54,218 nt of DNA from Alphaproteobacteria bacterium (GTDB lineage Bacteria > Pseudomonadota > Alphaproteobacteria > Rhizobiales > NORP267), in assembly GCA_028599125.1 (NCBI GenBank), contig JAQRMX010000032.1, positions 1 through 54,218 of the forward strand. Reading direction: 5' to 3'. The translations under genes and the position numbers were made by a program. Positions within the stretch are counted from its first letter, which is position 1. Each line of letters starts with the position of its first letter. Below the pieces are notes generated by a model. It saw only the letters and a list, made by a program, of their open reading frames with translations, was not told the origin of the DNA and did not search any database. Below, in pieces: positions 1-26,148 of the stretch.

Positions 1-163
1 CACCGGCCTTAACATCTGATGAATTGGACGCGCCGTTCTTCAGCTTGGCAAGAACAGCAGGCTTGTTGCCAAAGGCTTCAAGAAACGCAAAGGGAAAGGA
101 CGCCGCGTCATAGGGTTCGGCTGCAAGTTCGGATATCGCGTCTGCAATTTCAACAGCATTCAT
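1..163 (-). CDS. N-terminus of a class I SAM-dependent DNA methyltransferase (cut by window edge)
   Basis: Only the first 54 codons are inside the window. The start ATG is at 161-163, with GGAAG a few bases upstream. The translation begins MNAVEIADAISELAAEPYD and continues through FPFAFLEAFGNKPAVLAKL. This matches the conserved N-terminus I know from the large DNA methyltransferases annotated as YeeA/MmeI-like, which modify DNA in type IIG/IIL restriction-modification systems, where the same block reads roughly FPYAFLEAFGNKxxTIxRL. The catalytic domain is outside the window, so it cannot be said whether the gene is intact. With the phage-like remnant to its right, it suggests an accessory region at this edge. 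Confidence 0.6.
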   Translation of the reverse strand, partial: MNAVEIADAISELAAEPYDAASFPFAFLEAFGNKPAVLAKLKNGASNSSDVKAG

Positions 164-632
164 GGGCACTTCTTCCGCCCCGTCCGCACCGCCGGCCGGG
201 AGCCGGAACGGCGTATGGGGAAAGACAGGCGCAAAAAAACCGATCGCAACAGTCTAATGAACATCTCTGGTTTTTATCTGAAATCATGCCGCCCCCCTCT
301 TCATCTTACTGTACATCTCAAACAGTGTCTCCAGCCTTTCGGTATCGTTTCTGAAGCGGCGACCGATATAGATGCGTCCAGTGTTTCGTCGTTTTTCTCA
401 TGCGCGCGGCGTAGATTACCAGGCATGGTTTCAGGATTATAGAGAATAACAGGAAAATAAACAGAATTCAGGAACAAGCATGATCCCGTCTTCCCCACAG
501 ACAGGAAGTCTTATCCCAAAGAACCACTTTATCCGGAAGAACCATGAAAAAATGCCATACTGAAGGGAAAAGAGTCGTACCTGAAAGGAAGGCTGTTAAG
601 ATTGTACGTCTACGGACCCGTGAGAAATAAAA
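164..632. other. no gene recognised (469 bp)
   Basis: Intergenic stretch upstream of the methyltransferase start. Short open frames on both strands look like chance; none has a plausible ribosome binding site together with a recognisable protein. Confidence 0.5.
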
Positions 633-13236: not shown

Positions 13237-13290
13237 ACGCAACGAGGCCTTTCTATATGATGGGCCTCATGCAGGAGGGGCTTTTTTTTT
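13237..13290. terminator. possible terminator region between convergent genes
   Basis: GAGGCC and GGCCTC form a short inverted repeat around a 13-base loop (about 13240-13268), and a second weaker stem (CCTC/GAGG) is followed by a run of nine T on the plus strand ending at the lodB stop codon. The position between the convergent YdcF-like gene and lodB fits termination of the plus-strand transcript. The stems are short, so this is tentative. Confidence 0.4.
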
Positions 13291-14447
13291 CATGGAAAAA
13301 GGAGCTGGCTATCTTGCGTAGACGTCTGGTGACGCTTGGCAGGCAGGGTGGGGTTCGATTCTGAGGGGTGCCGTCGTTTCCAAAAAGGGCTGTCTGAAAA
13401 GCGGGTTTCTTGGGCATAGATTTGTGTTCTCTGATACAGGAAATTATAGCCGCCGCGGAGAATTGTTTCTGTATATTGTTCCTGAAGTCTGAGGTCACCT
13501 TTGAGTGAGTCAGGGATAAATTGGCTGGCCTGATAAGCCATCCATAATGCAGTTGTTATGCCGTGGGAAGACAGGGGATCAAAGACGCAGGCGGCATCAC
13601 CAACGGCGGCCCATCTGTCCCCGGTGGCAGGTTCCTGCCATTTTGTTCCGGCGCTAGAGAGCCGAGGAGGGGTAGGGACGGAAAAGCCTGCGGTCCTGAT
13701 CCACTGATGAATATAATTTGTTTCCTCAATCAGATTGTGCCATGCCTCAATATCCTGATAGAGCTTGCAGGGTAATAGGTCAGGGTCAGAAAAATAACTG
13801 ATAACTAGACGCTGATCCGGCAAGAGCGTGGCATACCACCAGCCATTTTCGACCGCTTCAATCACAGTTGCCGGGGTGGGGGTAATATCTGTATCAACCT
13901 GCTTGAGGAAACAATGTGCGCATACGAGGTGATCAATACGCTGAATTTCTGAGAGAGTTGAGGCTATAATTCTGCGTGATCCTGTGCAGTCAAGAAGGAA
14001 GTCAGCTCTGTAGCTTTCCCCGTTAGAGAGGGACAGCTCCCACTTTCCGGATTTTCTTTCAACGTGAGAGACGTTTGCCGTAACATGCTGCGGATCGGTC
14101 TCCTGCGCGGCTTTATAAAGATCTCCGTCAAAGACCGGTCGATCAAGGATGAGTCCTGGTCCTTCAAGATGGACAGCGGCATTCCGCTCATGGAGCCGCC
14201 CGCTTCCCCAAGCTGAATATATGCTATTGGCAGGCCTATGATACGCGGATCGCAAGAGGGACAGAAGGCCTATTTTTTCAAGGATCGGATTTGCTGCGGG
14301 GGACAGGGTCTCACCAATATGGTCACGGTGGTGAGCGGTCTGTTTTTCCGCAATCCACAAAGGTCGGATACCGATCTGGTCGAGAGAAATACAACAGGCT
14401 GTACCGGCAATTCCACCTCCTGCGATTGCAATGCAGGCTTGCGTCAT
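13290..14447 (-). CDS. lodB: LodB-like FAD-dependent maturase of a quinoprotein oxidase
   Basis: 385 residues. The N-terminal dinucleotide fold is CIAIAGGGIAGTACCISLDQ. Further blocks of the tryptophan-halogenase-like/LodB flavoproteins are GETLSPAANPILEKIGL, LLDCTGSRR, ENGWWYATLLPD and the FAD-contact motif WAAVGDAACVFDPLSSHGI. In Marinomonas, LodB is needed to form the cysteine tryptophylquinone of LodA. Its ATG (14445-14447) overlaps the lodA stop codon in an ATGA arrangement, so the two are translationally coupled and surely work together. The C-terminal 35 residues are Ser/Pro/His-rich and not obviously conserved. That it modifies this particular LodA is inferred from the pairing. Confidence 0.88.
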   Translation of the reverse strand: MTQACIAIAGGGIAGTACCISLDQIGIRPLWIAEKQTAHHRDHIGETLSPAANPILEKIGLLSLLRSAYHRPANSIYSAWGSGRLHERNAAVHLEGPGLILDRPVFDGDLYKAAQETDPQHVTANVSHVERKSGKWELSLSNGESYRADFLLDCTGSRRIIASTLSEIQRIDHLVCAHCFLKQVDTDITPTPATVIEAVENGWWYATLLPDQRLVISYFSDPDLLPCKLYQDIEAWHNLIEETNYIHQWIRTAGFSVPTPPRLSSAGTKWQEPATGDRWAAVGDAACVFDPLSSHGITTALWMAYQASQFIPDSLKGDLRLQEQYTETILRGGYNFLYQRTQIYAQETRFSDSPFWKRRHPSESNPTLPAKRHQTSTQDSQLLFP

Positions 14448-16486
14448 TCCTCTTTATAATTTGCGTTATAAAGGAGTTCTACTGGCCCCCGTTCACTTTC
14501 AACAAAGAGTTGTTCGGGTATCCCCTCCACACTTTCTGTTCCCTTCGGACCGTCTTTCCGGACAATAAAGCCGAGTCTCTCCCATAAATAAACCATATGA
14601 GTAATGCCATCCCAATAGCTTGCATTGGCATGATGGCCGATCCCGGGAACTCCCCGTGACCAAGAAACGCGGGTTTCAAAGAAGGTGCGGCGTTCCTTTG
14701 GCGTCAGGTCAGTGCGCATCAATTGCCTGTAATATTCTTCAGGCAGGACATCAATGGGCAGAAGTGCCGGCCACCAGACGGCGACAGGGAAATCTTGACG
14801 CATTAGAACCTGTTGGCAACTGAAGGCATCACTCTGCCAGGGCAGACCCATCCAGCGCGTCAGATCGCCTGGCATTTGGGGGCCTATTGGCGGCGGGCTG
14901 CCATTGCCCCCTTCCAACAAATTTTTCGGATTAAGCTGACGCCCGATATTGTGGAGCAAGGCAGGCCGGTTGCCGCGCGCGATACGGAAGGGCTCTGACC
15001 GTGTATTATTGTTGCGTGCATACATGGGGGCGTGCCGCAAATAATAGCTTAATTCGACACCGGGATGAAACGCGCCACCGGAGCATGGTTCAAGTGCGGC
15101 CTCTGTAAGCGCATGGGGACGGAGTGCAAGATCGAGATCATCAATATCGGAGACCATATCAAGCTTCTCTTCCTCATAGTCATCTATGAAGTCACCAGAA
15201 ACCCACCGTTCGAGATAGCTACGCTGCAGTTCCGTGAATGAGAGCCACAGGAGGGGACTGTTTTCATAATCAACCCCTTCACCCGGCATGAAGGGCATTT
15301 TCATTCGCTCTTCATGATAATCTTCATTCCCGCGTTTGTTTTTATTGCGCATTTTCGAAAAAAAATCTTGCCGGAATGCCTTATTTTTTCTGCTGGGATC
15401 ATGGAGTTTATGCCATAGGCTCTGATTGGAAAGGTCACCAAAAGTTCCGGTCCATGCCGTACGGAGCCGCTCTACGCCAGAAACCCAGTCCATCAATGCC
15501 AGACGATGAAATATGGGGTGGATATATTTGCGGTAGGAGAGGGGGCTTTCAGGGACTTTATCCCACTTTTTCTTTATATTGAGGTCCTGTATGACATCAT
15601 AGAGCGAAATAATCGGTGCGATTTCCGGAGCGAAATTGGGTCCGACGGTGCAAATCCATGCGCCATCGGCCTTCATTTCTTGCCCGGTATCGAAAGTGAC
15701 TGTTGCATTGATAGATCCGTCACACAAATCATCATACCAGCTCTCATTATCTGAGAAACTTGTGATGGAGGCGTTCACAGGGCTCTTTGAGGTTCCATTG
15801 GCAGGAAAGACCAGAAGGCGTCCGTTTTCGTCAGTGCGCAACTCTCCCAGATTCACCTTGTGTTCATTGTAGAACTTCCCTTCCATCGAATATCTGGGTG
15901 TGACGTTATCCTTCTTGAACAGACGCCCGTTATTTTCGATGGAACTCCCTGATATGCTTGTTTTTCCTCCATCTATGATCAGCATTTTCTCCCGTTCTTT
16001 ATCGGAGGTGATAGAGGGGTTCCGTTGCTTTCCGGGTATTCCGGGAGCCTCTTCTCCATTATCCATCGGATTTCTGAATCCGTACCATGCCGCTTTTGTA
16101 TTCGCGACATGGACGTCCCACTTGATTTTTGCCTCATCTGCTTTGATTTCTCTGATGATTCTGTCTTTGCTGTCGAAGGCATAGACACGAAAACGCTGCA
16201 CCTGCTTTTTGATGCGTTCCATACCATCTTTGTATCCGCCTTCGGGCGGCTTTGCTGAGCCTGGCACTTCTGGAGACAGATACCATTTATCGCTTCCTCC
16301 CACGCGGGATATACCTATAGCGGGGTAAATAGCCAGACGTGCGACAGCGGCATTCCGGGGAGCAACTTCGGGAACATTTGCTAGAGAGACAGAAGATTTG
16401 GCTAGGAAAGGAAAGGACATTGCTACTATGCTTGCGCCATACAGGAAATCGCGCCGGGTAACAGGGGCCTGTTTTTTGTCTGTCAT
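14444..16486 (-). CDS. lodA: LodA-like CTQ-dependent amino-acid oxidase with Tat-like signal
   Basis: 680 residues, start fixed by AAGGAAG upstream of the ATG at 16484-16486. The family oxidises amino acids (LodA: lysine at the epsilon amine; GoxA: glycine), giving ammonia and hydrogen peroxide, with a cofactor built from a Cys and a Trp. Seen here: the N-terminal family block LAIYPAIGISRVGGSDKWYL (about 51-70), HKVNLGELRTDENGRLLVFP (about 209-228), and the cofactor region LPWQSDAFSCQ with Asp553 and Cys557 four apart, as known for Asp512 and Cys516 of LodA. Tryptophans 571-572 (VWWPALLP) are the likely partner. The N-terminus has VTRRDFLYGASIVAMSFPFL, a twin-arginine-type signal with an Ala-rich end at about residue 36. 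The exact substrate cannot be read from the sequence. Confidence 0.88.
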   Translation of the reverse strand: MTDKKQAPVTRRDFLYGASIVAMSFPFLAKSSVSLANVPEVAPRNAAVARLAIYPAIGISRVGGSDKWYLSPEVPGSAKPPEGGYKDGMERIKKQVQRFRVYAFDSKDRIIREIKADEAKIKWDVHVANTKAAWYGFRNPMDNGEEAPGIPGKQRNPSITSDKEREKMLIIDGGKTSISGSSIENNGRLFKKDNVTPRYSMEGKFYNEHKVNLGELRTDENGRLLVFPANGTSKSPVNASITSFSDNESWYDDLCDGSINATVTFDTGQEMKADGAWICTVGPNFAPEIAPIISLYDVIQDLNIKKKWDKVPESPLSYRKYIHPIFHRLALMDWVSGVERLRTAWTGTFGDLSNQSLWHKLHDPSRKNKAFRQDFFSKMRNKNKRGNEDYHEERMKMPFMPGEGVDYENSPLLWLSFTELQRSYLERWVSGDFIDDYEEEKLDMVSDIDDLDLALRPHALTEAALEPCSGGAFHPGVELSYYLRHAPMYARNNNTRSEPFRIARGNRPALLHNIGRQLNPKNLLEGGNGSPPPIGPQMPGDLTRWMGLPWQSDAFSCQQVLMRQDFPVAVWWPALLPIDVLPEEYYRQLMRTDLTPKERRTFFETRVSWSRGVPGIGHHANASYWDGITHMVYLWERLGFIVRKDGPKGTESVEGIPEQLFVESERGPVELLYNANYKEE

Positions 16487-17275
16487 GAGATCTTCCTTAA
16501 AATTTTAAGAACAGAAAAAGAGACCTTCCGTCTAAATTTCATGCTATAATCTTACGCATGTCATTATGATCACCTAAGTCTATTTTCTGAAAAATTCAAC
16601 AGCAATTTTTGTTTTGAGTTTTAGTTTTCGGAAAATAGGAATATTTTTCCAAAATTATCGTTGCAGTGCTGATTTTCAGCATATCAGGCAGGGGAGGAGG
16701 TTTCCCGGACAATTACAGGATTTTCTCTGATATATGTATATGCGCTGTTCTTTAAAAACACTGTTCTTTAAAAATAATGGTTTTGAAGGATGATGTTAAG
16801 AGAAACTCTTTTCTGAATGACGAAGTTTTGTTTCCCGTCTGTCTGTTTCATCTATTTTTTTCCGGTGACCGCTTTTTCTGCGAAGAACATATTCACAGGC
16901 AGGTTTGTCTCTGTTTCAGGGGGGCAGTGTTTTTTGTGACATGCGAGAGGAAAAAGCATGGAGGGCCTGCCGTGGAAAGAGCGTACCGGCTCTCAGAGAG
17001 AAAGAGGGTTTCTGAAATCATTCTTCAGGGGACATATTAATTTTGCGTATAGCTCGCGAATAGCCGGACATCATTTGTAACATGCGTTTCACCTTTTTAG
17101 GTTTAGGAAAAAGGAGAGCAACGCTGTGTGTCTTTCTGGTTACCGCTCTTAAGAAATTTCTGATTTAACAAGGGGCAGGTAAATGAGGGTTAGATTGCAC
17201 CTGCCGATTCTGCTTTTAGATTTACTTGAATTTTATTAAAAATATAAAAATTCTGAATTCCTTGCATTCCTTAAC

Positions 17276-17290
17276 TTTGTAAGTTACAAA
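17276..17290. promoter_or_regulatory. 15-bp palindrome TTTGTAAGTTACAAA
   Basis: Perfect 7-bp arms around a single G, about 200 bp upstream of the cold-shock gene. The size and symmetry fit a dimeric repressor site, but no known regulator consensus was recognised. Confidence 0.35.
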
Positions 17291-17448
17291 AGGGACTGAG
17301 TTTCTATTACTCTTGTTAGAATGATGCTATTCTTTGGATAGTAAGACCTGATTATAAAGGTTACCTGAGGATCTTCCTTGAATTATTGATCCTAAGCGTT
17401 TGAATAAGAGTGAGCCGGTGAGATGAGTGGTGTGTTTTGTATCGGATG

Positions 17449-17460
17449 AATGCTCTTTAA
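17449..17460 (+). promoter_or_regulatory. boxA-like element TGCTCTTTAACA in the csp leader
   Basis: Twelve bases identical to the boxA antitermination sequence of E. coli rRNA operons, and the following AATTTG also resembles the rRNA leader. It lies 28 bases before the csp ATG, in the expected transcript. BoxA binds NusB/S10 in rRNA leaders; function here is inference. Confidence 0.5.
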
Positions 17461-17488
17461 CAATTTGAACGCTAAAAGGAAAAATACG

Positions 17489-17701
17489 ATGGCATACGGT
17501 ACAGTAAAATGGTTCAACCCTGCCAAGGGTTATGGTTTCCTCGCTCCTGATGATGGTACAGAGGATATTTTTATTCATATCAGCGCCTTGGAAAAGGCTG
17601 GTATGCATCAATTGAATGATGGTCAGAAAGTCTCTTACGAGGTAGAGGCAAACAAAGGCAGGACCTCTGCAGTGAATATTCAGCTGCGGGACACTCCCTG
17701 A
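17489..17701 (+). CDS. cold-shock protein (CspA family)
   Basis: 70 residues, a complete single cold-shock domain that binds single-stranded RNA and DNA. Both RNA-binding motifs are present: RNP1 KGYGFL (about 16-21) and RNP2 DIFIHI (about 30-35), with the family start MAYGTVKWFNPAKGYGF. The start ATG at 17489 follows AAAAGGAAAAA. The DEAD-box helicase starts about 100 bp downstream on the same strand. Cold-shock proteins and DEAD-box helicases both unwind RNA structure, so the pair probably acts in RNA handling under cold or stress. The long AT-rich leader is typical of csp genes. Confidence 0.95.
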   Translation: MAYGTVKWFNPAKGYGFLAPDDGTEDIFIHISALEKAGMHQLNDGQKVSYEVEANKGRTSAVNIQLRDTP

Positions 17702-17803
17702 TACCTTCAATATCTTTCATCCAATACAATAAATATTCAGAGAGTGTGCGCGTGCCTATGTATTAACATAGGCATGCGTTTCTCTGCGTTAAGGAAGTTA
17801 CTC

Positions 17804-19012
17804 ATGAAAACATTTCAGGAAATGGGGCTTCCTGAAGCCCTTATTCATACATTGCAGCATATGAAATTTACTGAACCAACACCCGTTCAAGCTCAGGCTA
17901 TTCCTCTTGCGTTGCAAGGAAAAGATATATTGGGATCAGCACAGACCGGAACCGGCAAAACCGGTGCGTTCGGTATTCCGCTTGTTGCCAGACTTTTATC
18001 TGATCCTCGCGGTTCAGCATTAGTAATGACACCAACGCGTGAGCTTGCTACACAGGTGATAAGCCAGTTACAGTCTATGCTGGGCAGAAAATCCAAAATC
18101 AAATCAGCATTACTGATTGGTGGTGATTCAATGCCTAAGCAGCTGACGCATCTGAGTACCCAACCACGTCTTATTGTGGGAACGCCGGGAAGAATCAATG
18201 ATCATCTCAAGCGTGGAAGTTTAAAGCTGAACAGTACAGATTTTCTAGTACTGGATGAGACAGACAGGATGCTGGATATGGGCTTCTCCATCCAAATTGA
18301 GACTGTCATGAAATATATGTCTGCCAAACGCCAGACACTTCTGTTTTCGGCTACTTTGCCGAAAAATATTGTACGGATAGCCGAGAAATATCTGAATGAG
18401 CCTGTCCGTATTGCTCTGAATACAGCTTTAGTGCCGGCAGAGAATATAAAACAAGATATTTTGCTCATTAGCGAAGCCGATAAATATTCCAATTTTCTCT
18501 CCCAGCTTAATGAGAGACAAGGTTCTGTCATTGTGTTTGTGAAAACCAAATATGGCACAGAGAAAATGGCCACTAAGCTCTCCAAAGAAGGTCACAGCAC
18601 CAACGCGCTTCACGGTAATTTACGACAAAATAAGCGTGATCGTGTCATTTCTGCTTTCCGTGACAAGAAGTACCGTATTCTTGTTGCTACTGATGTAGCG
18701 GCACGTGGATTGGACATTCCTCATATTGAGCATGTTATCAATTATGATCTACCTCAATGTGCGGAAGATTATATTCATCGTATTGGCAGGACAGCCAGAG
18801 CCGGCGCAGAGGGTGCAGCTCTGACCCTTGTAACACCCGCAGATAAAAGTAAATGGGCTGCGATTGACCGGCTGCTTAATCCGGATGCGTCGCGATCTGA
18901 AAAAACAAAGAGCCAGAAGAAAGTTCGTTTTAAAGGAAAGAGCAAAAGTGATACTGTGCCTTTTCATAAGCGCAAAAACAAGAAACGAGTTAGCTCAAAA
19001 AGAGCGGCTTAA
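17804..19012 (+). CDS. DEAD-box ATP-dependent RNA helicase with a DETD box
   Basis: 402 residues from ATG 17804, preceded by AAGGAAG. The motifs in order are Q motif EPTPVQAQAIPLAL, Walker A AQTGTGKTGAFG, PTRELATQ, GG at IGGD, GTPGRI, motif II VLDETDRMLDMGF, SAT at FSATLP, IVFVKTKYGTEKM, HGNLRQNKRDR, ATDVAARGLDIPHIEHVINYD and HRIGRTARAG. Motif II reads DETD rather than DEAD, with the third residue Thr instead of Ala, and the fourth Asp kept. A basic Lys/Arg/Ser-rich tail (about 360-402) is likely an RNA-binding extension as in RhlE/RhlB-type enzymes. It follows the csp gene in the same direction. Confidence 0.93.
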   Translation: MKTFQEMGLPEALIHTLQHMKFTEPTPVQAQAIPLALQGKDILGSAQTGTGKTGAFGIPLVARLLSDPRGSALVMTPTRELATQVISQLQSMLGRKSKIKSALLIGGDSMPKQLTHLSTQPRLIVGTPGRINDHLKRGSLKLNSTDFLVLDETDRMLDMGFSIQIETVMKYMSAKRQTLLFSATLPKNIVRIAEKYLNEPVRIALNTALVPAENIKQDILLISEADKYSNFLSQLNERQGSVIVFVKTKYGTEKMATKLSKEGHSTNALHGNLRQNKRDRVISAFRDKKYRILVATDVAARGLDIPHIEHVINYDLPQCAEDYIHRIGRTARAGAEGAALTLVTPADKSKWAAIDRLLNPDASRSEKTKSQKKVRFKGKSKSDTVPFHKRKNKKRVSSKRAA

Positions 19013-19527
19013 TTTTTAAACCGTAAAATAACTGCAAGATATGCTGTGATTTGCTATCCCCGCTGTTCCGGTCTTTGATAGTTTTGCGGATAGTGCGCTA
19101 AAGAGCCTGTTTAGTAGTCTTCCAGGGAGTTCATTAAGAACCACAAGAAACATAATCTTCAGAAGATTCCAACAATCAGATGAAAAATCATTACGGATCC
19201 TCGAATATTTTATTAATGGATCTGTTGCGTTTTTTAACGCTATGACAGAGATGCATCGCACCAATAAAGCAAGTAATGTTCAATCTGGCAGTTTGAAATA
19301 CAGATCGAAAATATCAGCCTACAGGATATGAATGTTAGATCTATTTTTGAAAGGAAGATTCTGCAAGAAAAATATAAAATAATCAGTTTTGAAGGCATTC
19401 TGCTGAACGATGAGGGTCTTATCAAAATGTTTAACCATGGTCTTGTATGATTTCTTAAAAATACAAGCTTCAGTTAGAAGAAATTAATCCTGATGATAGG
19501 AGTAATTTTTCAAGCGCTTACATAACG

Positions 19528-19548
19528 ATCATGGATCATGGATCATGG
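19528..19548. repeat. three perfect copies of ATCATGG
   Basis: Head-to-tail 7-bp copies followed by ATCA, in non-coding DNA of the island. Confidence 0.9.
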
Positions 19549-19637
19549 ATCAAAAGTGCTTTTGCAAAAATCAAAATATTGAAATTTTTCAATGATCTCT
19601 TTACATATTTCATAGAAGTGTACAAGACGCCATCCTG

Positions 19638-19781
19638 ATGTTATGGGGTGCTTTCAGAAATTCAAAGAAGAGAAAAGAGCGGACAAAAGAGGCCACTAAA
19701 TTGATAGAAGAAGAAGCCGAAACCTTTAGCGAATTGAAGAAAGTCAGAATCAAGCTTATGAGCCCGTATCTCACCAAATAA
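19638..19781 (+). CDS. possible small charged protein, unknown
   Basis: A 47-residue frame (MLWGAFRNSKKRKERTKEAT, then Glu-rich EEEAETFSELKKVRIKLMSP). It is highly charged and helical-looking, unlike the hydrophobic chance frames around it, but has no clear ribosome binding site and no family I recognise. It could equally be the end of a decayed larger gene. Confidence 0.2.
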   Translation: MLWGAFRNSKKRKERTKEATKLIEEEAETFSELKKVRIKLMSPYLTK

Positions 19782-20862
19782 ATTTCTGAAACCGAGACTG
19801 GAGTTAAATAAATATAATCAAAAAGGCATAAGATCTTTTGCATCTCCTTTCGCGGTTCTGAGCTTTTCATCACGAGATCCATGAGGATGTTGAGAGGCAA
19901 TAGTAACTGCTAGCTTTGATGCCATAATTTTTCTTCTATTTATGTCTCCGCGCCAGACTATTCCACCCATTATTTTAAGATGAAATCTTCCCATATAGCG
20001 GACCCCACTGGGGACAGAAGCCCCTGAAGGGGTGTTTTCTGTCTGGTCACATCCACGTTTGTCCTTTCAGCGCGATTTATTGCCAATGAGTTGTGCTCAA
20101 TGAATGGTGATTCTGGTGTCATTTTTTCGGTTCTTCCGTCACGGTGGTGAGGGGCGGCAACTCACGCAAATTGAAGGCATTTTATCTGAACAATCGAGAG
20201 ATCTTTCCAGACATTTTTGTCCTTACGTCTCGTTATCATTATCAATTAAGAAGCTAACGTGAAGATAAAAAGCTAAGAAAACTTGACAGACCGGCTCCCT
20301 CAAGGCGATCAGCATGCCGGAACGTGCTCAAGAAACGTTCAGTGATTGTTTGATGATCCTTCGTTAAATAGCACGTTCCAGAATCTTGATTTGTATCTCC
20401 GGGGCGTATGGATAGCCGCTTCCGATAAACTGCTGTCTGATGGCTTTCTTCTGTGATCTTGCGGCGGTCCTCGCGGGAAAAGCTCTGGCCTATGAGATAA
20501 TTTCCGGTACAAAAGTTTTTAAATAGAAGGCCCTCTTGTTATCTTATGGTCGGATATCAGTTTTTGGCTGTTCATCACAGACTATAAGCTTCCAGCATGG
20601 GCACGCCACAGAGAGACTGCGTCATTTGGAACAATGACTTAAATAGAAGTTCCCTTCGTTTAATTTATTCTCTGGAGCACACGACCACTCGTCAAAGCGT
20701 GATACGAACTATTTCAGGTGCGGGAAGGGGAGCGATGTCCATATCCCATAAATCAGCAGGGTAGTATGGATACTAGTTTTATGTAGCTTATATAGCTATT
20801 TACGCTAAACGAGAACTTCCAGTTAGACTGAAAAAGCGGTTACCACTAGCGCTTTTGGTGGT

Positions 20863-22500
20863 TTATGACTTGAACCCCACATACCGCAAGCGGTCTAATA
20901 TACGAGAAAATTGTAAAGCGTTCTCTGACTCAGGAAAATTCATTCCTTCAATATAGGTTCCACCAGCTACGTAAACAGGAGTAGTTTCAGCAAGTGAAGA
21001 ATCCACATAGCGATATGAGCCTGAAGATTCACGTTCCAAATCGCCAAACAGCAACGGAAATGCATAAGCATCACCATGATAAACTTTACCGGTATTTTTA
21101 TCAGGGTAATTTCCAATAAGACCAAACATATATCTCTTTAAATTTTTCGTTATGCTCATCTCGTAAGCTTTCAAGACATTATCATAAACGACAGATATCT
21201 CCTTTTTCTTTGCCTCTAGCATCAGAACGCTCAGGGAATATATGAAATCCAGTCTGTCTGATTGTTTCATGAATATCTGAATTCGCTTTATACCTGACCA
21301 ATCAGGGTCGTTTTCAGGTTTGTTATCTGTAAGATTTTTTAAGATAGACCGACAGGAGGTTATGGTCTTTTCCCCGGAATCCCCTAAACCAGATATATGA
21401 TCAGAAATAGAGTGAATGGCGCTATTCAGACTTTTTTCTAAATTTTCTTTTTGAACAGGATCTACAAATAAGCAGTTACTAACGTCCAAAAGTGCCTGGC
21501 TCTGTTTTTGAAATGTTATCAGATGACCCGTGAATGGGATTACATTATCATCATTTGCAAGCTCTTTTGCTCCGAGGCCAGAACAATTAAAAACAAGCTT
21601 ATCGCCTATATCAGAAAAATTCTTAACGCGAACGTTAGGCGTCACGCTTATATTGTTTTCCGAAATGAAGTTTCTTAGCTCTCTCCGAACATGTTCGACA
21701 TTCATAAAAAACAATTGTGACAGGACTACATCATGCGTTTCATTTTCAACTTTTATCTTGGTTTTGAAAACAGGGGGAATTAATCCCAGATTTACTAATT
21801 GCTGTGTTGATTGACTTGAATTATAGCCGAATGAAGGCATAAGCTCAGCATCAACATCCTGAAAATCAGGATTATTTCCTAGACTTATATCATGATACGC
21901 TGCGTAAGAATTTAATAATTGCTGCTCTGTTCCGCTATGCCCGATAAGAACAGGTTCGAATAACCCTCCCGCATGATCTGATGCCAGATCACTTAACTTA
22001 TCTGCAACGATAGAAATTTTACCTATGATGCCAGGATTTTTTTCTTTGAGTTTGCTTAGGTAATATGCAGAAAACTGTCCTATAATGCCAGCACCTATGA
22101 TTGTTACGTCAGCTCCCTTGAGGTAATTCCATTTTCCTTCAAGCTGCTTCAAAAGGATAGCGACAGCTTCTTGCGTTGTTCCCGGTGCGAGTGTCCAGCC
22201 AGAGCCACCATGACCATAACAGTGGACAATATGTTTTTGATCAATTTGCTCTGATTCAATACGAATACCTTCTGGCCGTGCAGGGCGAACGCAAATAATA
22301 TCTTTGTATATGTTTAATTTGGAGCCAATTTTTATTGGAAAAAGTCTATGAACTGAGGTCAATTTATTTTGCTTTCTTAAAACATCGTAAGCAATAGATA
22401 AGAAAAGATAGAAAAAATATGACAAAGGAGCTATAAACTTCAAGAACATACGTTTGGTCATTGTAATTCTTATCTTTCTGGAAGCATTTTTATCTGACAA
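20863..22500 (-). CDS. membrane-anchored FAD oxidoreductase with circularly permuted D-amino-acid-oxidase blocks
   Basis: 545 residues, AT-rich. One membrane helix is predicted at about 19-40. Residues 70-82 (CVRPARPEGIRIE) and 91-104 (IVHCYGHGGSGWTL, then PGTTQEAV) are the block that ends ordinary D-amino-acid oxidases (RPVRPxIRLE ... IHNYGHGGxGLTxxWG). Here they come before the dinucleotide-binding motif VTIIGAGIIGQFSAYYL (about 132-148), which normally opens the protein. The rest then follows in usual order: SDHAGGLFEPVL (about 174), NCSGLGAKELA with VIPFTGHLITF, and a C-terminus ending VYVAGGTYIEGMNFPESENA. FAD-linked oxidation of an amine or amino acid is the likely activity; the substrate is unknown. 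It is the only large intact gene of the island. Confidence 0.75.
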   Translation of the reverse strand: MSDKNASRKIRITMTKRMFLKFIAPLSYFFYLFLSIAYDVLRKQNKLTSVHRLFPIKIGSKLNIYKDIICVRPARPEGIRIESEQIDQKHIVHCYGHGGSGWTLAPGTTQEAVAILLKQLEGKWNYLKGADVTIIGAGIIGQFSAYYLSKLKEKNPGIIGKISIVADKLSDLASDHAGGLFEPVLIGHSGTEQQLLNSYAAYHDISLGNNPDFQDVDAELMPSFGYNSSQSTQQLVNLGLIPPVFKTKIKVENETHDVVLSQLFFMNVEHVRRELRNFISENNISVTPNVRVKNFSDIGDKLVFNCSGLGAKELANDDNVIPFTGHLITFQKQSQALLDVSNCLFVDPVQKENLEKSLNSAIHSISDHISGLGDSGEKTITSCRSILKNLTDNKPENDPDWSGIKRIQIFMKQSDRLDFIYSLSVLMLEAKKKEISVVYDNVLKAYEMSITKNLKRYMFGLIGNYPDKNTGKVYHGDAYAFPLLFGDLERESSGSYRYVDSSLAETTPVYVAGGTYIEGMNFPESENALQFSRILDRLRYVGFKS

Positions 22501-22840
22501 ACGAAATCATTAATTCGAAAGCCCCCGTTATTATTTGATAGGCGTAATTATTACTTAGAAAAAACACAATCAAAAGAGTCTAGCTAATTTTAAGAGAATG
22601 TCAAAACATAGTAAAATCAGATACAGAGCTACATTATTTAAACCAAACGATATATGTCTATGGATATTTTTTCTATCCATCAGTTTCCGGTGGTTCGGTT
22701 TTCTGCTTCCGTATTTTTTGCGTCTTTATTAGCTTTGCGTTTCCGCCTGGCCCGGATGATACAGGTTTCCTTATCCATTTCAGTATGAACGAAACTGATG
22801 AAAAGACATATCAAAAGAAGCGCTGTGAATGTCTTTATGA
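22501..22840. other. no gene recognised (340 bp)
   Basis: Upstream region of the permuted oxidoreductase, AT-rich near its start. It probably includes that gene's promoter. Nothing else could be supported. Confidence 0.45.
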
Positions 22841-23335
22841 TTACAGATGCTGGAAAAATTTAATCAACAGCTTACTCCCATGCTCATTTGCCGCCTTTAA
22901 CGCCGCAATATATTGCGCAGCGATTCCTATCGTCGGTCAATGCGCCTTCCCCTGACCAATCCAGAAAAATATCCTGATTTAGACCGGATAGAAAGCTATC
23001 TACCATAATTCGCGTCCAGAGGCCATTTCTGTTTGCAAATGGATGGTAAATCCAGAGCAATTTGTAGTGGTAGGGGAGCCATGCGCTTGCTTTCAGTGGC
23101 TCAAGGGTGGGGTTCTTACGCCGGTAGCGGGATTCAGTCAGGCAAGGAGGAGTATTTTTTGATCTGTATACTTCAGAAAGGCACGCCGATAAAGTTACAT
23201 GAGACCTTCAGTGATATTATACTCCTCCAGCTCATTAAATTCAGTGCGATTGGGAATGTGCCTGACCTTGAGCCCCGTTCATTCGTCTGGCGTTAGCGGC
23301 GTCATGCCTGAAGGTTCGTGAAGTTTGAAATTCAT
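22841..23335 (-). pseudogene. decayed mobile mystery protein B (Fic-domain protein)
   Basis: Read on the minus strand from an ATG at 23333-23335, the frame gives MNFKLHEPSGMTPLTPDE, a stop where a Trp is expected, TGLKVRHIPNRTEFNELEEY, NITEGLM, a second stop, then LYRRAFLKYTDQK. After a degraded middle comes WIYHPFANRNGLWTRIMVD, which is the Fic motif (HPFxxGNGRxxR) with two substitutions, and after a frameshift YIAALKAANEHGSKLLIKFF to a stop at 22841-22843. This order matches mobile mystery protein B, a Fic-type protein of mobile regions. At least two in-frame stops, a deletion and a frameshift show it is dead. Fic enzymes transfer AMP to proteins; no activity is expected here. Confidence 0.65.
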
Positions 23336-23692
23336 TTTCAGCAGTTACTTGGTATGTCGCGCATCATTTCAGATGCACTTCTTCAATCATCCCATTTTTG
23401 CTGCGCCGCACCTCGGTTTTTTCCTTTGAGTTCATGTGAACGCGGGTGTAGCGGGTAAGGCCCCCGGCCTTCTTTTCCGGCTTGGGTCATGGTAGATTCT
23501 CTGCGCTCCTTCGCGAGGGAGAACCGCGTAGATCAGCTTGCTCCTATGGCGACAGCATTGACCCACTTATCAATACAAAAGGGTTCCAAGTTTTTGATGA
23601 AATAGGGGAGTTTGGAGGTGCGTATGCTCTCATGCAGCAAAAGATACAATTCGATGAATTTCTAATTGCGGAGCAGATTATCGAGTTGCTTT
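23336..23692. other. decayed DNA between two pseudogenes
   Basis: Short coding-like stretches appear in several minus-strand frames but no family could be named. A mobile mystery protein A gene, the usual partner of B, was looked for and not found. Confidence 0.4.
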
Positions 23693-23878
23693 TCACAGGG
23701 TTGCATACCGGCAAGCCAAGCGTTTCTTTTGTAGCCTCCGGCCAGTTGTAATGGTTTTGACCTTGTCAATATCTTCACTCAGCACCCTCACATCAAGAAA
23801 TCTGGCATGGTGACATCCAAGAAAGGTGAGCAAGTCTGATAATGAATAGAGAATCTGATCGTTACCGTATTGCCGCAT
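23693..23878 (-). pseudogene. N-terminal remnant of a TM0106-type RecB-like nuclease
   Basis: The 61-codon frame begins MRQYGNDQILYSLSDLLTFL and continues GCHHARFLDVRVLSED, ending in RLQKKRLACRYATL. This resembles the N-terminus of the TM0106/RecB-like nuclease family (xGxLxLSxSDLxxFLxCxHxxxLDL ... ELLQRKGLEHE). Full proteins are several hundred residues or more; here only the start survives and the downstream sequence is broken by stops. The assignment rests on one conserved block. Confidence 0.4.
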
Positions 23879-23974
23879 GTCTCTGTCTTATAACTTGATT
23901 CATCAATAATTCACTTGATTATTCATCTATTTTCTATTATTGTCAATCTTATAGTATCTCAAGGGATAGAAATT

Positions 23975-24187
23975 ATGATTAACAATGACATCATGACGGT
24001 TAAAGAACTTGCTGAGTATCTCAAAATTGCTGAAAAAACGGCTTACAGATTTGTGTCCGAAGGGAAAGTGCCGAGCTTCAAGGTTGGGAGCGCATGGCGC
24101 TTCAAGAAGGAAGAGATCGATTCGTGGATTAAGGCTCAATGCAGGAATAACAATACTGAAGAACCAAGAAGAAAAAATGAGAACTAG
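23975..24187 (+). CDS. excisionase-like helix-turn-helix DNA-binding protein
   Basis: 70 residues from ATG 23975, preceded by AAGGGA. The sequence MTVKELAEYLKIAEKTAYRF followed by VSEGKVPSFKVGSAWRFKKE and EIDSWI is the HTH_17/MerR-like excisionase domain, intact. Such proteins bind DNA as small regulators or recombination directionality factors. It overlaps the start of a truncated cytosine methyltransferase by about 11 bases; small HTH genes of this type are often linked to restriction-modification methyltransferases, so it may have been the control protein of a lost system. Confidence 0.8.
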   Translation: MINNDIMTVKELAEYLKIAEKTAYRFVSEGKVPSFKVGSAWRFKKEEIDSWIKAQCRNNNTEEPRRKNEN

Positions 24188-24453
24188 CATGAGCACAGAT
24201 CTGAATAATCCAAATCGGTTCTCTGAAAATGAATATTTTTATCAAGTAAAGGATCAGCTGGAAAGATGGAGCCCTTCAAAAGCTTTATCAGGAAAAAAGG
24301 CGATCCAAGTTATCAATCTCTTTTCCGGGTGGGGTGGAATGTCTCTTTAGATTTGGACTTCTTGCCAAAGTGATCAAGAAGGTACAGCTTATCGAGGAAG
24401 TTAATATAAATGCCCCCGAAGCAAATTTATTCAAAAGTAAAGAAGTTAATACT
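24177..24453 (+). pseudogene. N-terminal remnant of a C5-cytosine DNA methyltransferase
   Basis: From ATG 24177 (or 24189) the frame reads MSTDLNNPNRFSENEYFYQV and reaches AIQVINLFSGWGGMSL, the motif I (FSGxGG, SAM binding) of Dcm-type enzymes, where a TAG stops it at 24348-24350. One base over, the family sequence continues as RFGLLAKVIKKVQLIEEVNI with NAPEAN, matching the following part of motif I/II, so a frameshift is present. The rest of the protein (catalytic PCQ and target recognition) is missing. The second frame runs directly into the DUF2188 copy. Confidence 0.6.
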
Positions 24454-24589
24454 ATGAAACAAGAAAAAGTTCAACATGTAGTTACTCCTTTGAAAGGATG
24501 GGCTGTTAAGGGTGCAGGCAACAGTGAAGGCAAAAAAAGTCTTGAATACGCAGGAAAAAACGATTAAATGTGCTGAAAAGATTGCCTGA
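24454..24589 (+). pseudogene. frameshifted DUF2188 copy
   Basis: Begins MKQEKVQHVVTPLKGWAVKG then AGNSEGKKS, clearly related to the gene at 4899-5132 (NQHVIPHPKGWAVKGEGNS). A frameshift in the run of A at about 24534 moves the homologous continuation VLNTQEKTIKCAEKIA into another frame, which ends at a TGA where the paralogue has an Ala-Lys-Gly. The normal C-terminus (IHGxxGKIRxxNSYGNDP) is lost. Confidence 0.7.
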
Positions 24590-25680
<1,091 letters not shown>

Positions 25681-25747
25681 ACAGGCTTGCCGGAAGGAAG
25701 AGGTTTTTTCCGGAAGCGATCCCATTCAATACACAGCCCCTCTTTCT

Positions 25748-26072: not shown

Positions 26073-26148
26073 GCGGTTCATTTAGGCATGGAACCGCCTT
26101 TTTCAGGTCGCGCCCTTGTGAGGTGAACGCGACCTGAAAAAGGCGGTT
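26073..26148 (+). promoter_or_regulatory. rplU leader with two mutually exclusive hairpins
   Basis: Hairpin 1: GCGGTTC (26073-26079) pairs with GAACCGC (26091-26097). Hairpin 2: 26092-26112 pairs perfectly over 21 bp with 26128-26148 around a 15-base loop. The 3' arm of hairpin 1 is the start of the 5' arm of hairpin 2, so both cannot form at once. Hairpin 2 ends 19 bases before the rplU start codon, and no T-run follows, so it is not an ordinary terminator. It looks like a switch that could control translation of L21; that role is inference. Confidence 0.65.

What the first reader, a model, noticed from the sequence alone, without database searches (positions are those of the whole stretch)
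20863..22500. Circularly permuted D-amino-acid-oxidase-like flavoprotein with a membrane anchor
In classical D-amino-acid oxidases the order is GxGxxG fold first and RPxRxxIRLE...HNYGHGGxGxT last. Here the RPARPEGIRIE and HCYGHGGSGWTL blocks (residues 72-104) precede VTIIGAGIIG (132-141), and the protein ends just where the RPxR block would normally begin. All other blocks (SDHAGGLFEP, NCSGLGAKEL, GHLITF) keep their order. In the oxidase fold these two ends lie near each other, so a permutation is structurally plausible. An N-terminal membrane helix adds to the novelty. I have a memory of similarly arranged, unnamed proteins in Legionella-like bacteria, so the arrangement may exist elsewhere without being described.
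Basis: partly seen in the sequence, partly recalled or inferred. Interest (0 to 1): 0.75.

Follow-up and report, generated by a model that had tools for sequence, protein, structure and literature searches.

The report
Circularly permuted D-amino-acid-oxidase-like protein
The gene encodes a flavin enzyme related to D-amino-acid oxidase whose last conserved block has moved to the front of the protein; this rearrangement is not unique to this genome but is shared by a widespread bacterial clade, mostly with export signals, for which I found no description.

Summary
ORF 20863-22500 (-) has all the quoted blocks at the stated residues. Its RPxR...YGHGG block (64-121) matches the C-terminus of D-amino-acid oxidases (DAAO), and its FAD block (130-335) matches their N-terminus. 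No second C-terminal block follows. This is not a one-off. At least 34 relatives from Alphaproteobacteria, another proteobacterial class, an actinomycete and phage-like contigs have the same order. Their profile crosses the junction in the window protein in one alignment (122 bits). In a tree they sit on one side of a 100/99 branch, apart from canonical enzymes. No solved structure, NCBIfam model or accessible paper covers the permuted arrangement. The "membrane anchor" is more likely a Tat signal: 26 of 33 scanned relatives carry RR-Tat motifs, 15 also a lipobox; the window protein has TKRMFLK, and the genome encodes TatC. Special to the window protein are its extreme divergence and a roughly 210-residue C-terminus that no profile recognises. 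The most likely role is an exported FAD-dependent oxidase or dehydrogenase of an amino acid or similar compound. Substrate, electron acceptor and three-dimensional fit are unproven; the structure model was poor. The Legionella recollection was not supported (143 genomes of an inferred Legionellaceae family).

The parts
20863..22500 (-). whole ORF, 545 aa from TTG; likely real start ATG at 22461 (codon 14)
22393..22461 (-). N-terminal Tat-like signal, MTKRMFLKFIAPLSYFFYLFLSI (residues 14-36): KR variant of the [ST]RRxFLK motif followed by a moderately hydrophobic stretch; possible SxA cleavage site (LSIA)
   Evidence: hydropathy maximum at residues 18-36; motif and hydrophobic stretch; 26 of 33 relatives have RR-Tat motifs in the same place; TatC in the same genome
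22138..22311 (-). displaced C-terminal block (residues 64-121): RPARPEGIRIE ... HCYGHGGSGWTL ... helix; R72 aligns to substrate-binding R283 of DAAO
   Evidence: (window 70-122 to DAAO 281-336)
21496..22113 (-). FAD-binding block (residues 130-335): GAGIIG, SDHAGG, NCSGLGAKEL, GHLITF, in canonical order among themselves
20863..21495 (-). C-terminal part (residues 336-545): no significant match to any family profile; includes an extra stretch (about 336-470) where canonical DAAO has its active-site lid (inference), and a possible final strand PVYVAGGTYIEG (508-519)
   Evidence: no match above shuffles; 14-residue core reached by 34 of 5000 shuffles

Best explanation
A natural circular permutant of the D-amino-acid oxidase fold. 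The old chain is opened just before the RPxR strand; the old C-terminal helix is now joined by a short linker to the first strand of the FAD-binding fold. The permutation probably arose once, before the window protein and its bacterial relatives diverged. The protein binds FAD; the Arg of RPxR (R72 = DAAO R283) holds the substrate carboxylate; hydride passes from the substrate carbon to FAD; the imine hydrolyses to a keto acid and ammonia; electrons go to oxygen or to a respiratory carrier. A Tat-type N-terminal signal exports it folded, with its cofactor, to the periplasmic side of the membrane. Shown by sequence: the permuted order, shared descent, conserved FAD motifs and Arg, and the Tat motif in relatives. 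Inferred: the fold closure, FAD binding, export of this particular protein, the chemistry, substrate and acceptor.
For: Swapped but complete matches to solved DAAO/D-aspartate oxidases: profile of 9 members E 1.2e-43, positions 113-367 to chain 11-265 and 58-112 to chain 280-337. Same order in 34 relatives. The relatives' profile covers window 64-335 colinearly through the junction at 122 bits, whereas a canonical profile needs two swapped pieces. Permuted group on one side of a branch with support 100/99. Relative L037 modelled with pTM 0.66; its 33 best PDB fold matches are all DAAO or D-aspartate oxidase. Tat motifs in 26 of 33 relatives, lipobox in 15, window TKRMFLK; TatC in the genome. 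A cytochrome c gene directly follows the Kozakia homologue.
Against: The window protein is very divergent (end branch 3.25, best identity 28%) and its last 210 residues are unrecognised, so it may have lost or changed activity. Its own model is poor (pLDDT 43.5). No experiment. The Tat motif has K in place of the first R. The Rhizobium/Bradyrhizobium-type clade lacks an export signal, so export is not universal in the family.
Confidence: 0.7

Rival explanations
1. Not a permutation but a fusion: an extra RPxR/YGHGG block was added in front of a complete oxidase that still has its own C-terminal block.
For: The window protein is about 150-200 residues longer than canonical enzymes, so there would be room.
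Against: No second YGHG block after the FAD part in the open frames of the relatives; compact relatives such as L037 (362 aa) have no room for a second block; profiles match each part once.
Confidence: 0.03
2. Assembly or frameshift artefact that reversed the order of two gene pieces.
For: A single assembly of 84 contigs.
Against: The same order recurs in 34 independent sequences, including complete plasmids and genomes; open frame without stops.
Confidence: 0.01
3. The window copy is a derived, possibly non-oxidase descendant: the permuted FAD core is kept, but the substrate side (residues 336-545) has been replaced or is decaying, so the protein acts on an unrelated substrate or not as an enzyme.
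For: Residues 336-545 give no profile match; the only resemblance, PVYVAGGTYIEG, is weak; very long branch; the gene lies in an AT-rich, gene-poor stretch.
Against: Intact 545-codon frame; the FAD motifs, R72 and the YGHGG loop are kept; a Tyr (Y479 in DAYAFP) stands where DAAO Y228 would be expected, by eye only.
Confidence: 0.22
4. The N-terminal segment is a permanent membrane anchor, rather than a cleaved Tat signal (compatible with the best explanation otherwise).
For: A helix is predicted at 16-44 in a low-confidence model; no lipobox and no classical AxA site.
Against: Motif, position and hydrophobicity fit Tat signals of relatives; hydropathy 1.69 over 19 residues is moderate.
Confidence: 0.3

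Closest known systems
D-amino-acid oxidase / D-aspartate oxidase (EC 1.4.3.3 / 1.4.3.1), Pfam PF01266
   Same: FAD-binding GxGxxG block, NCxGLG block, RPxR Arg, HNYGHGG loop; best sequence and fold matches in PDB
   Different: Order of blocks permuted; export signal; no close identity
Uncharacterised bacterial proteins annotated 'FAD-dependent oxidoreductase', e.g. WP_304495191.1 (Bradyrhizobium elkanii plasmid), WSH67949.1 (Rhizobium ruizarguesonis), WP_070404188.1 (Kozakia baliensis)
   Same: Identical permuted order, many with Tat signals
   Different: 21-23% identity over full length for the eight in the alignment; they lack the window's long C-terminal part, and many keep an FPR..D..GG[ST] block
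Glycine oxidase ThiO (NCBIfam TIGR02352)
   Same: C-terminal ThiO block 298-349 matches window 67-118
   Different: 29.7 bits against a cut-off of 250.8; order permuted

Membership tests
DAAO/D-aspartate oxidase (PF01266) | score above the Pfam gathering cut-off | tested here: met
   49.6 bits against 27.9
DAAO/D-aspartate oxidase (PF01266) | GxGxxG FAD-binding fold at the N-terminus and RPxR/HNYGHGG block at the C-terminus | tested here: not met
   both blocks present, order reversed
DAAO/D-aspartate oxidase (PF01266) | substrate-carboxylate Arg (R283) and Tyr (Y228) | tested here: inconclusive
   R72 aligns to R283; a Tyr in DAYAFP is placed by eye only, the region has no significant match
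DAAO/D-aspartate oxidase (PF01266) | oxidation of D-amino acids with FAD | not testable with these tools
   needs enzyme assay
permuted DAO-like bacterial clade (defined here) | RPxR/YGHGG block before GxGxxG, colinear with relatives | tested here: met
   122 bits over 64-335
permuted DAO-like bacterial clade (defined here) | groups with permuted, not canonical, enzymes in a tree | tested here: met
   permuted group one side of a 100/99 branch; window on a long branch
permuted DAO-like bacterial clade (defined here) | Tat signal (majority of members) | tested here: inconclusive
   KR variant TKRMFLK at the right place; export not tested
permuted DAO-like bacterial clade (defined here) | C-terminal FPR..D..GG[ST] block | tested here: inconclusive
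   no profile match; 14-residue core reached by 34 of 5000 shuffles
glycine oxidase ThiO (TIGR02352) | score above NCBIfam cut-off | tested here: not met
   29.7 against 250.8

The most novel reading that the evidence does not exclude
A monophyletic, widespread and so far undescribed clade of naturally circularly permuted D-amino-acid oxidases, in which most members pair the permutation with Tat export, and of which the window protein is an early or very fast-evolving branch with a new element of roughly 125 residues in place of the active-site lid.
Probability: 0.4. Interest if true: 0.7.

Novelty: new variant of a known kind. Interest (0 to 1): 0.5.

Why it matters
DAAO is a textbook flavoenzyme and a biotechnology workhorse; a natural family-wide circular permutation of it would be a ready-made test of how a two-domain flavoenzyme folds, and would correct the annotation of many 'FAD-dependent oxidoreductases'. 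If exported, these enzymes would oxidise D-amino acids or related compounds outside the cytoplasm, a location where bacterial DAAO-type enzymes are, to my knowledge, not described.

Tried and rejected
The Dojkabacteria match L005 is in a valyl-tRNA-synthetase-like frame around a chance KPENDPDW and was discarded. The whole-sequence HMMER score of the rejoined protein is not informative. Foldseek follows chain order, so it cannot test the placement of 64-121. Viral collection: the only relatives are L036-L038. Literature: eight searches found no paper on a permuted D-amino-acid oxidase; the one Tat/DAAO hit (PMC12502724) merely lists a D-amino acid oxidase among released Asaia proteins. The Mesorhizobium homologue annotated as two genes is a single-base frameshift, not a natural split. 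The hit I read in the order of G912 (L039) has canonical order and served as a control.

Full report
The observation. Pfam DAO matches above its cut-off in two stretches. NCBIfam ThiO positions 298-349 match residues 67-118. Against solved structures, residues 70-122 match the C-terminal block of D-amino-acid oxidases (281-336) and residues 130-331 match the N-terminal block of D-aspartate oxidase (13-216). So the last block of the oxidase precedes the first. R72 falls on R283 of DAAO, the substrate-carboxylate arginine (role from general knowledge of DAAO).

It is a family, not a single oddity. tblastn found relatives on plasmids of Bradyrhizobium, Rhizobium, Niveispirillum, Kozakia and the actinomycete Nonomuraea, in 10 of 396 other genomes of the same order, and in 19 of 397 other genomes of the phylum sample, two of which were already in the order sample. 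The translated open frames show RPxR, then YGHGG, then GxGxxG in almost every case, without a second C-terminal block; L016 has YGHS. Phage-like contigs add two more distinct members. A profile of nine members hits 17 solved DAAO/D-aspartate oxidase sequences far above the rest (best E 1.2e-43), and the alignments shown are two swapped stretches; none is contiguous through the junction. A profile of relatives without the window protein aligns to residues 64-335 in one piece, 122 bits, through the permuted junction. A profile of six canonical bacterial enzymes aligns in two swapped pieces.

One origin is plausible. With the permuted sequences rotated to canonical order, 34 permuted and 6 canonical proteins separate by one branch (100/99), and label shuffles never do so well. 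The window protein lies on the permuted side on a very long branch (3.25), so its exact place is unsure. The canonical sample is small.

Export. In the relatives the same place holds RR-type Tat signals (26 of 33 scanned) and often a lipobox (15 of 33); the members without a signal are the Rhizobium/Bradyrhizobium/Nonomuraea-type clade and one whose open frame begins too late to tell. The window protein has TKRMFLK followed by a moderately hydrophobic stretch, which is the [ST]RRxFLK consensus with K for the first R. The genome encodes TatC. A Tat route suits a protein that carries FAD. Whether the signal is cleaved is not known.

What is peculiar to the window protein. Residues 336-545 match no profile of the family; a sub-profile of the corresponding region scores no better than shuffled sequence. 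A 14-residue core around PVYVAGGTYIEG is reached by 34 of 5000 shuffles, and a 30-residue version by 1422 of 5000. I read this as a possible remnant of the last GG[ST] strand after an insertion of roughly 125 residues where DAAO has its lid (lid position from general knowledge), but that is an inference. No close homologue was found in 100 relatives, 397 genomes of the order, 398 of the phylum, 369 of a second proteobacterial class, or 143 of a family I infer to be Legionellaceae because its genomes carry many IcmL copies.

Structure. With the three sequences allowed, the model of the window protein is poor (pLDDT 43.5). That of the relative in L037 is moderate (60.5, pTM 0.66; most of residues 34-268, which span the junction, confident). 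Its 33 best PDB fold matches are all DAAO or D-aspartate oxidase. Foldseek respects chain order and aligned mostly about 200 columns, so the placement of the moved block is not tested.

Function. Conserved FAD motifs and the arginine argue for oxidation of a substrate with a carboxylate next to an amine. In the clade without signals, the gene stands beside a thiamine-diphosphate enzyme in Bradyrhizobium, Rhizobium and Mesorhizobium, and a Tat-like relative in G379 also has such a neighbour on the opposite strand; a berberine-bridge-like oxidase precedes it in Bradyrhizobium and an annotated FAD-binding oxidoreductase in Rhizobium. That would fit a keto acid made by the oxidase and then decarboxylated, which is a guess. 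In Kozakia a cytochrome c gene follows, which would fit a dehydrogenase. The window gene has no such neighbour.

Surroundings. The gene lies in a stretch of 37-42% G+C, while the rest is near 47%, with few recognisable genes between 19 and 25 kb, a tRNA-Ser at 25591-25680 and a small HTH_17 protein at 23915-24187. This is what a genomic island at a tRNA gene can look like, but no integrase or direct repeat was found. About 4.4 kb away is a GoxA/GoxB pair above NCBIfam cut-offs.

Novelty. No NCBIfam model covers the permuted order in six relatives, no solved structure does, and eight literature searches found nothing. Most subscription papers were not searchable, so prior description cannot be excluded.

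Noticed in passing
13290-16486 (-): GoxA (CTQ-dependent glycine oxidase) with its maturase GoxB, both above NCBIfam cut-offs, about 4.4 kb from the permuted oxidase gene in a 1.43 Mb genome: two amino-acid-oxidase-type enzymes close together.
   Followed up: partly
16500-25700: AT-rich, gene-poor stretch next to tRNA-Ser (25591-25680) with a small excisionase-like HTH_17 protein (23915-24187); possible genomic island, no integrase found.
   Followed up: partly
26092-26148: Perfect 21-nt inverted repeat with 15-nt spacer just before the ribosomal protein L21 gene (26168-26509).
   Followed up: no
L038 1420-2454 and L037 3545-4633: Permuted oxidase genes on phage-like contigs: in L038 right after a terminase-like gene and upstream of portal- and capsid-like genes (read from the translations, not searched), in L037 after a terminase-like gene; may be cargo carried by phages or gene-transfer agents.
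   Followed up: no
L071 2926-3989: Mesorhizobium homologue annotated as two overlapping genes; a one-base frameshift just after GAGVMG explains it.
   Followed up: yes
L006, L010, L056, L071: Thiamine-diphosphate-dependent enzyme beside the permuted oxidase in four loci (in L056 on the opposite strand); possible common pathway.
   Followed up: partly
G000:C84:31429-32474: 16S rRNA of the window's genome: best plasmid-collection match 88.7% (Shinella), so the host looks like a deep, reduced-genome lineage near Hyphomicrobiales; the model match breaks up after position 902.
   Followed up: partly
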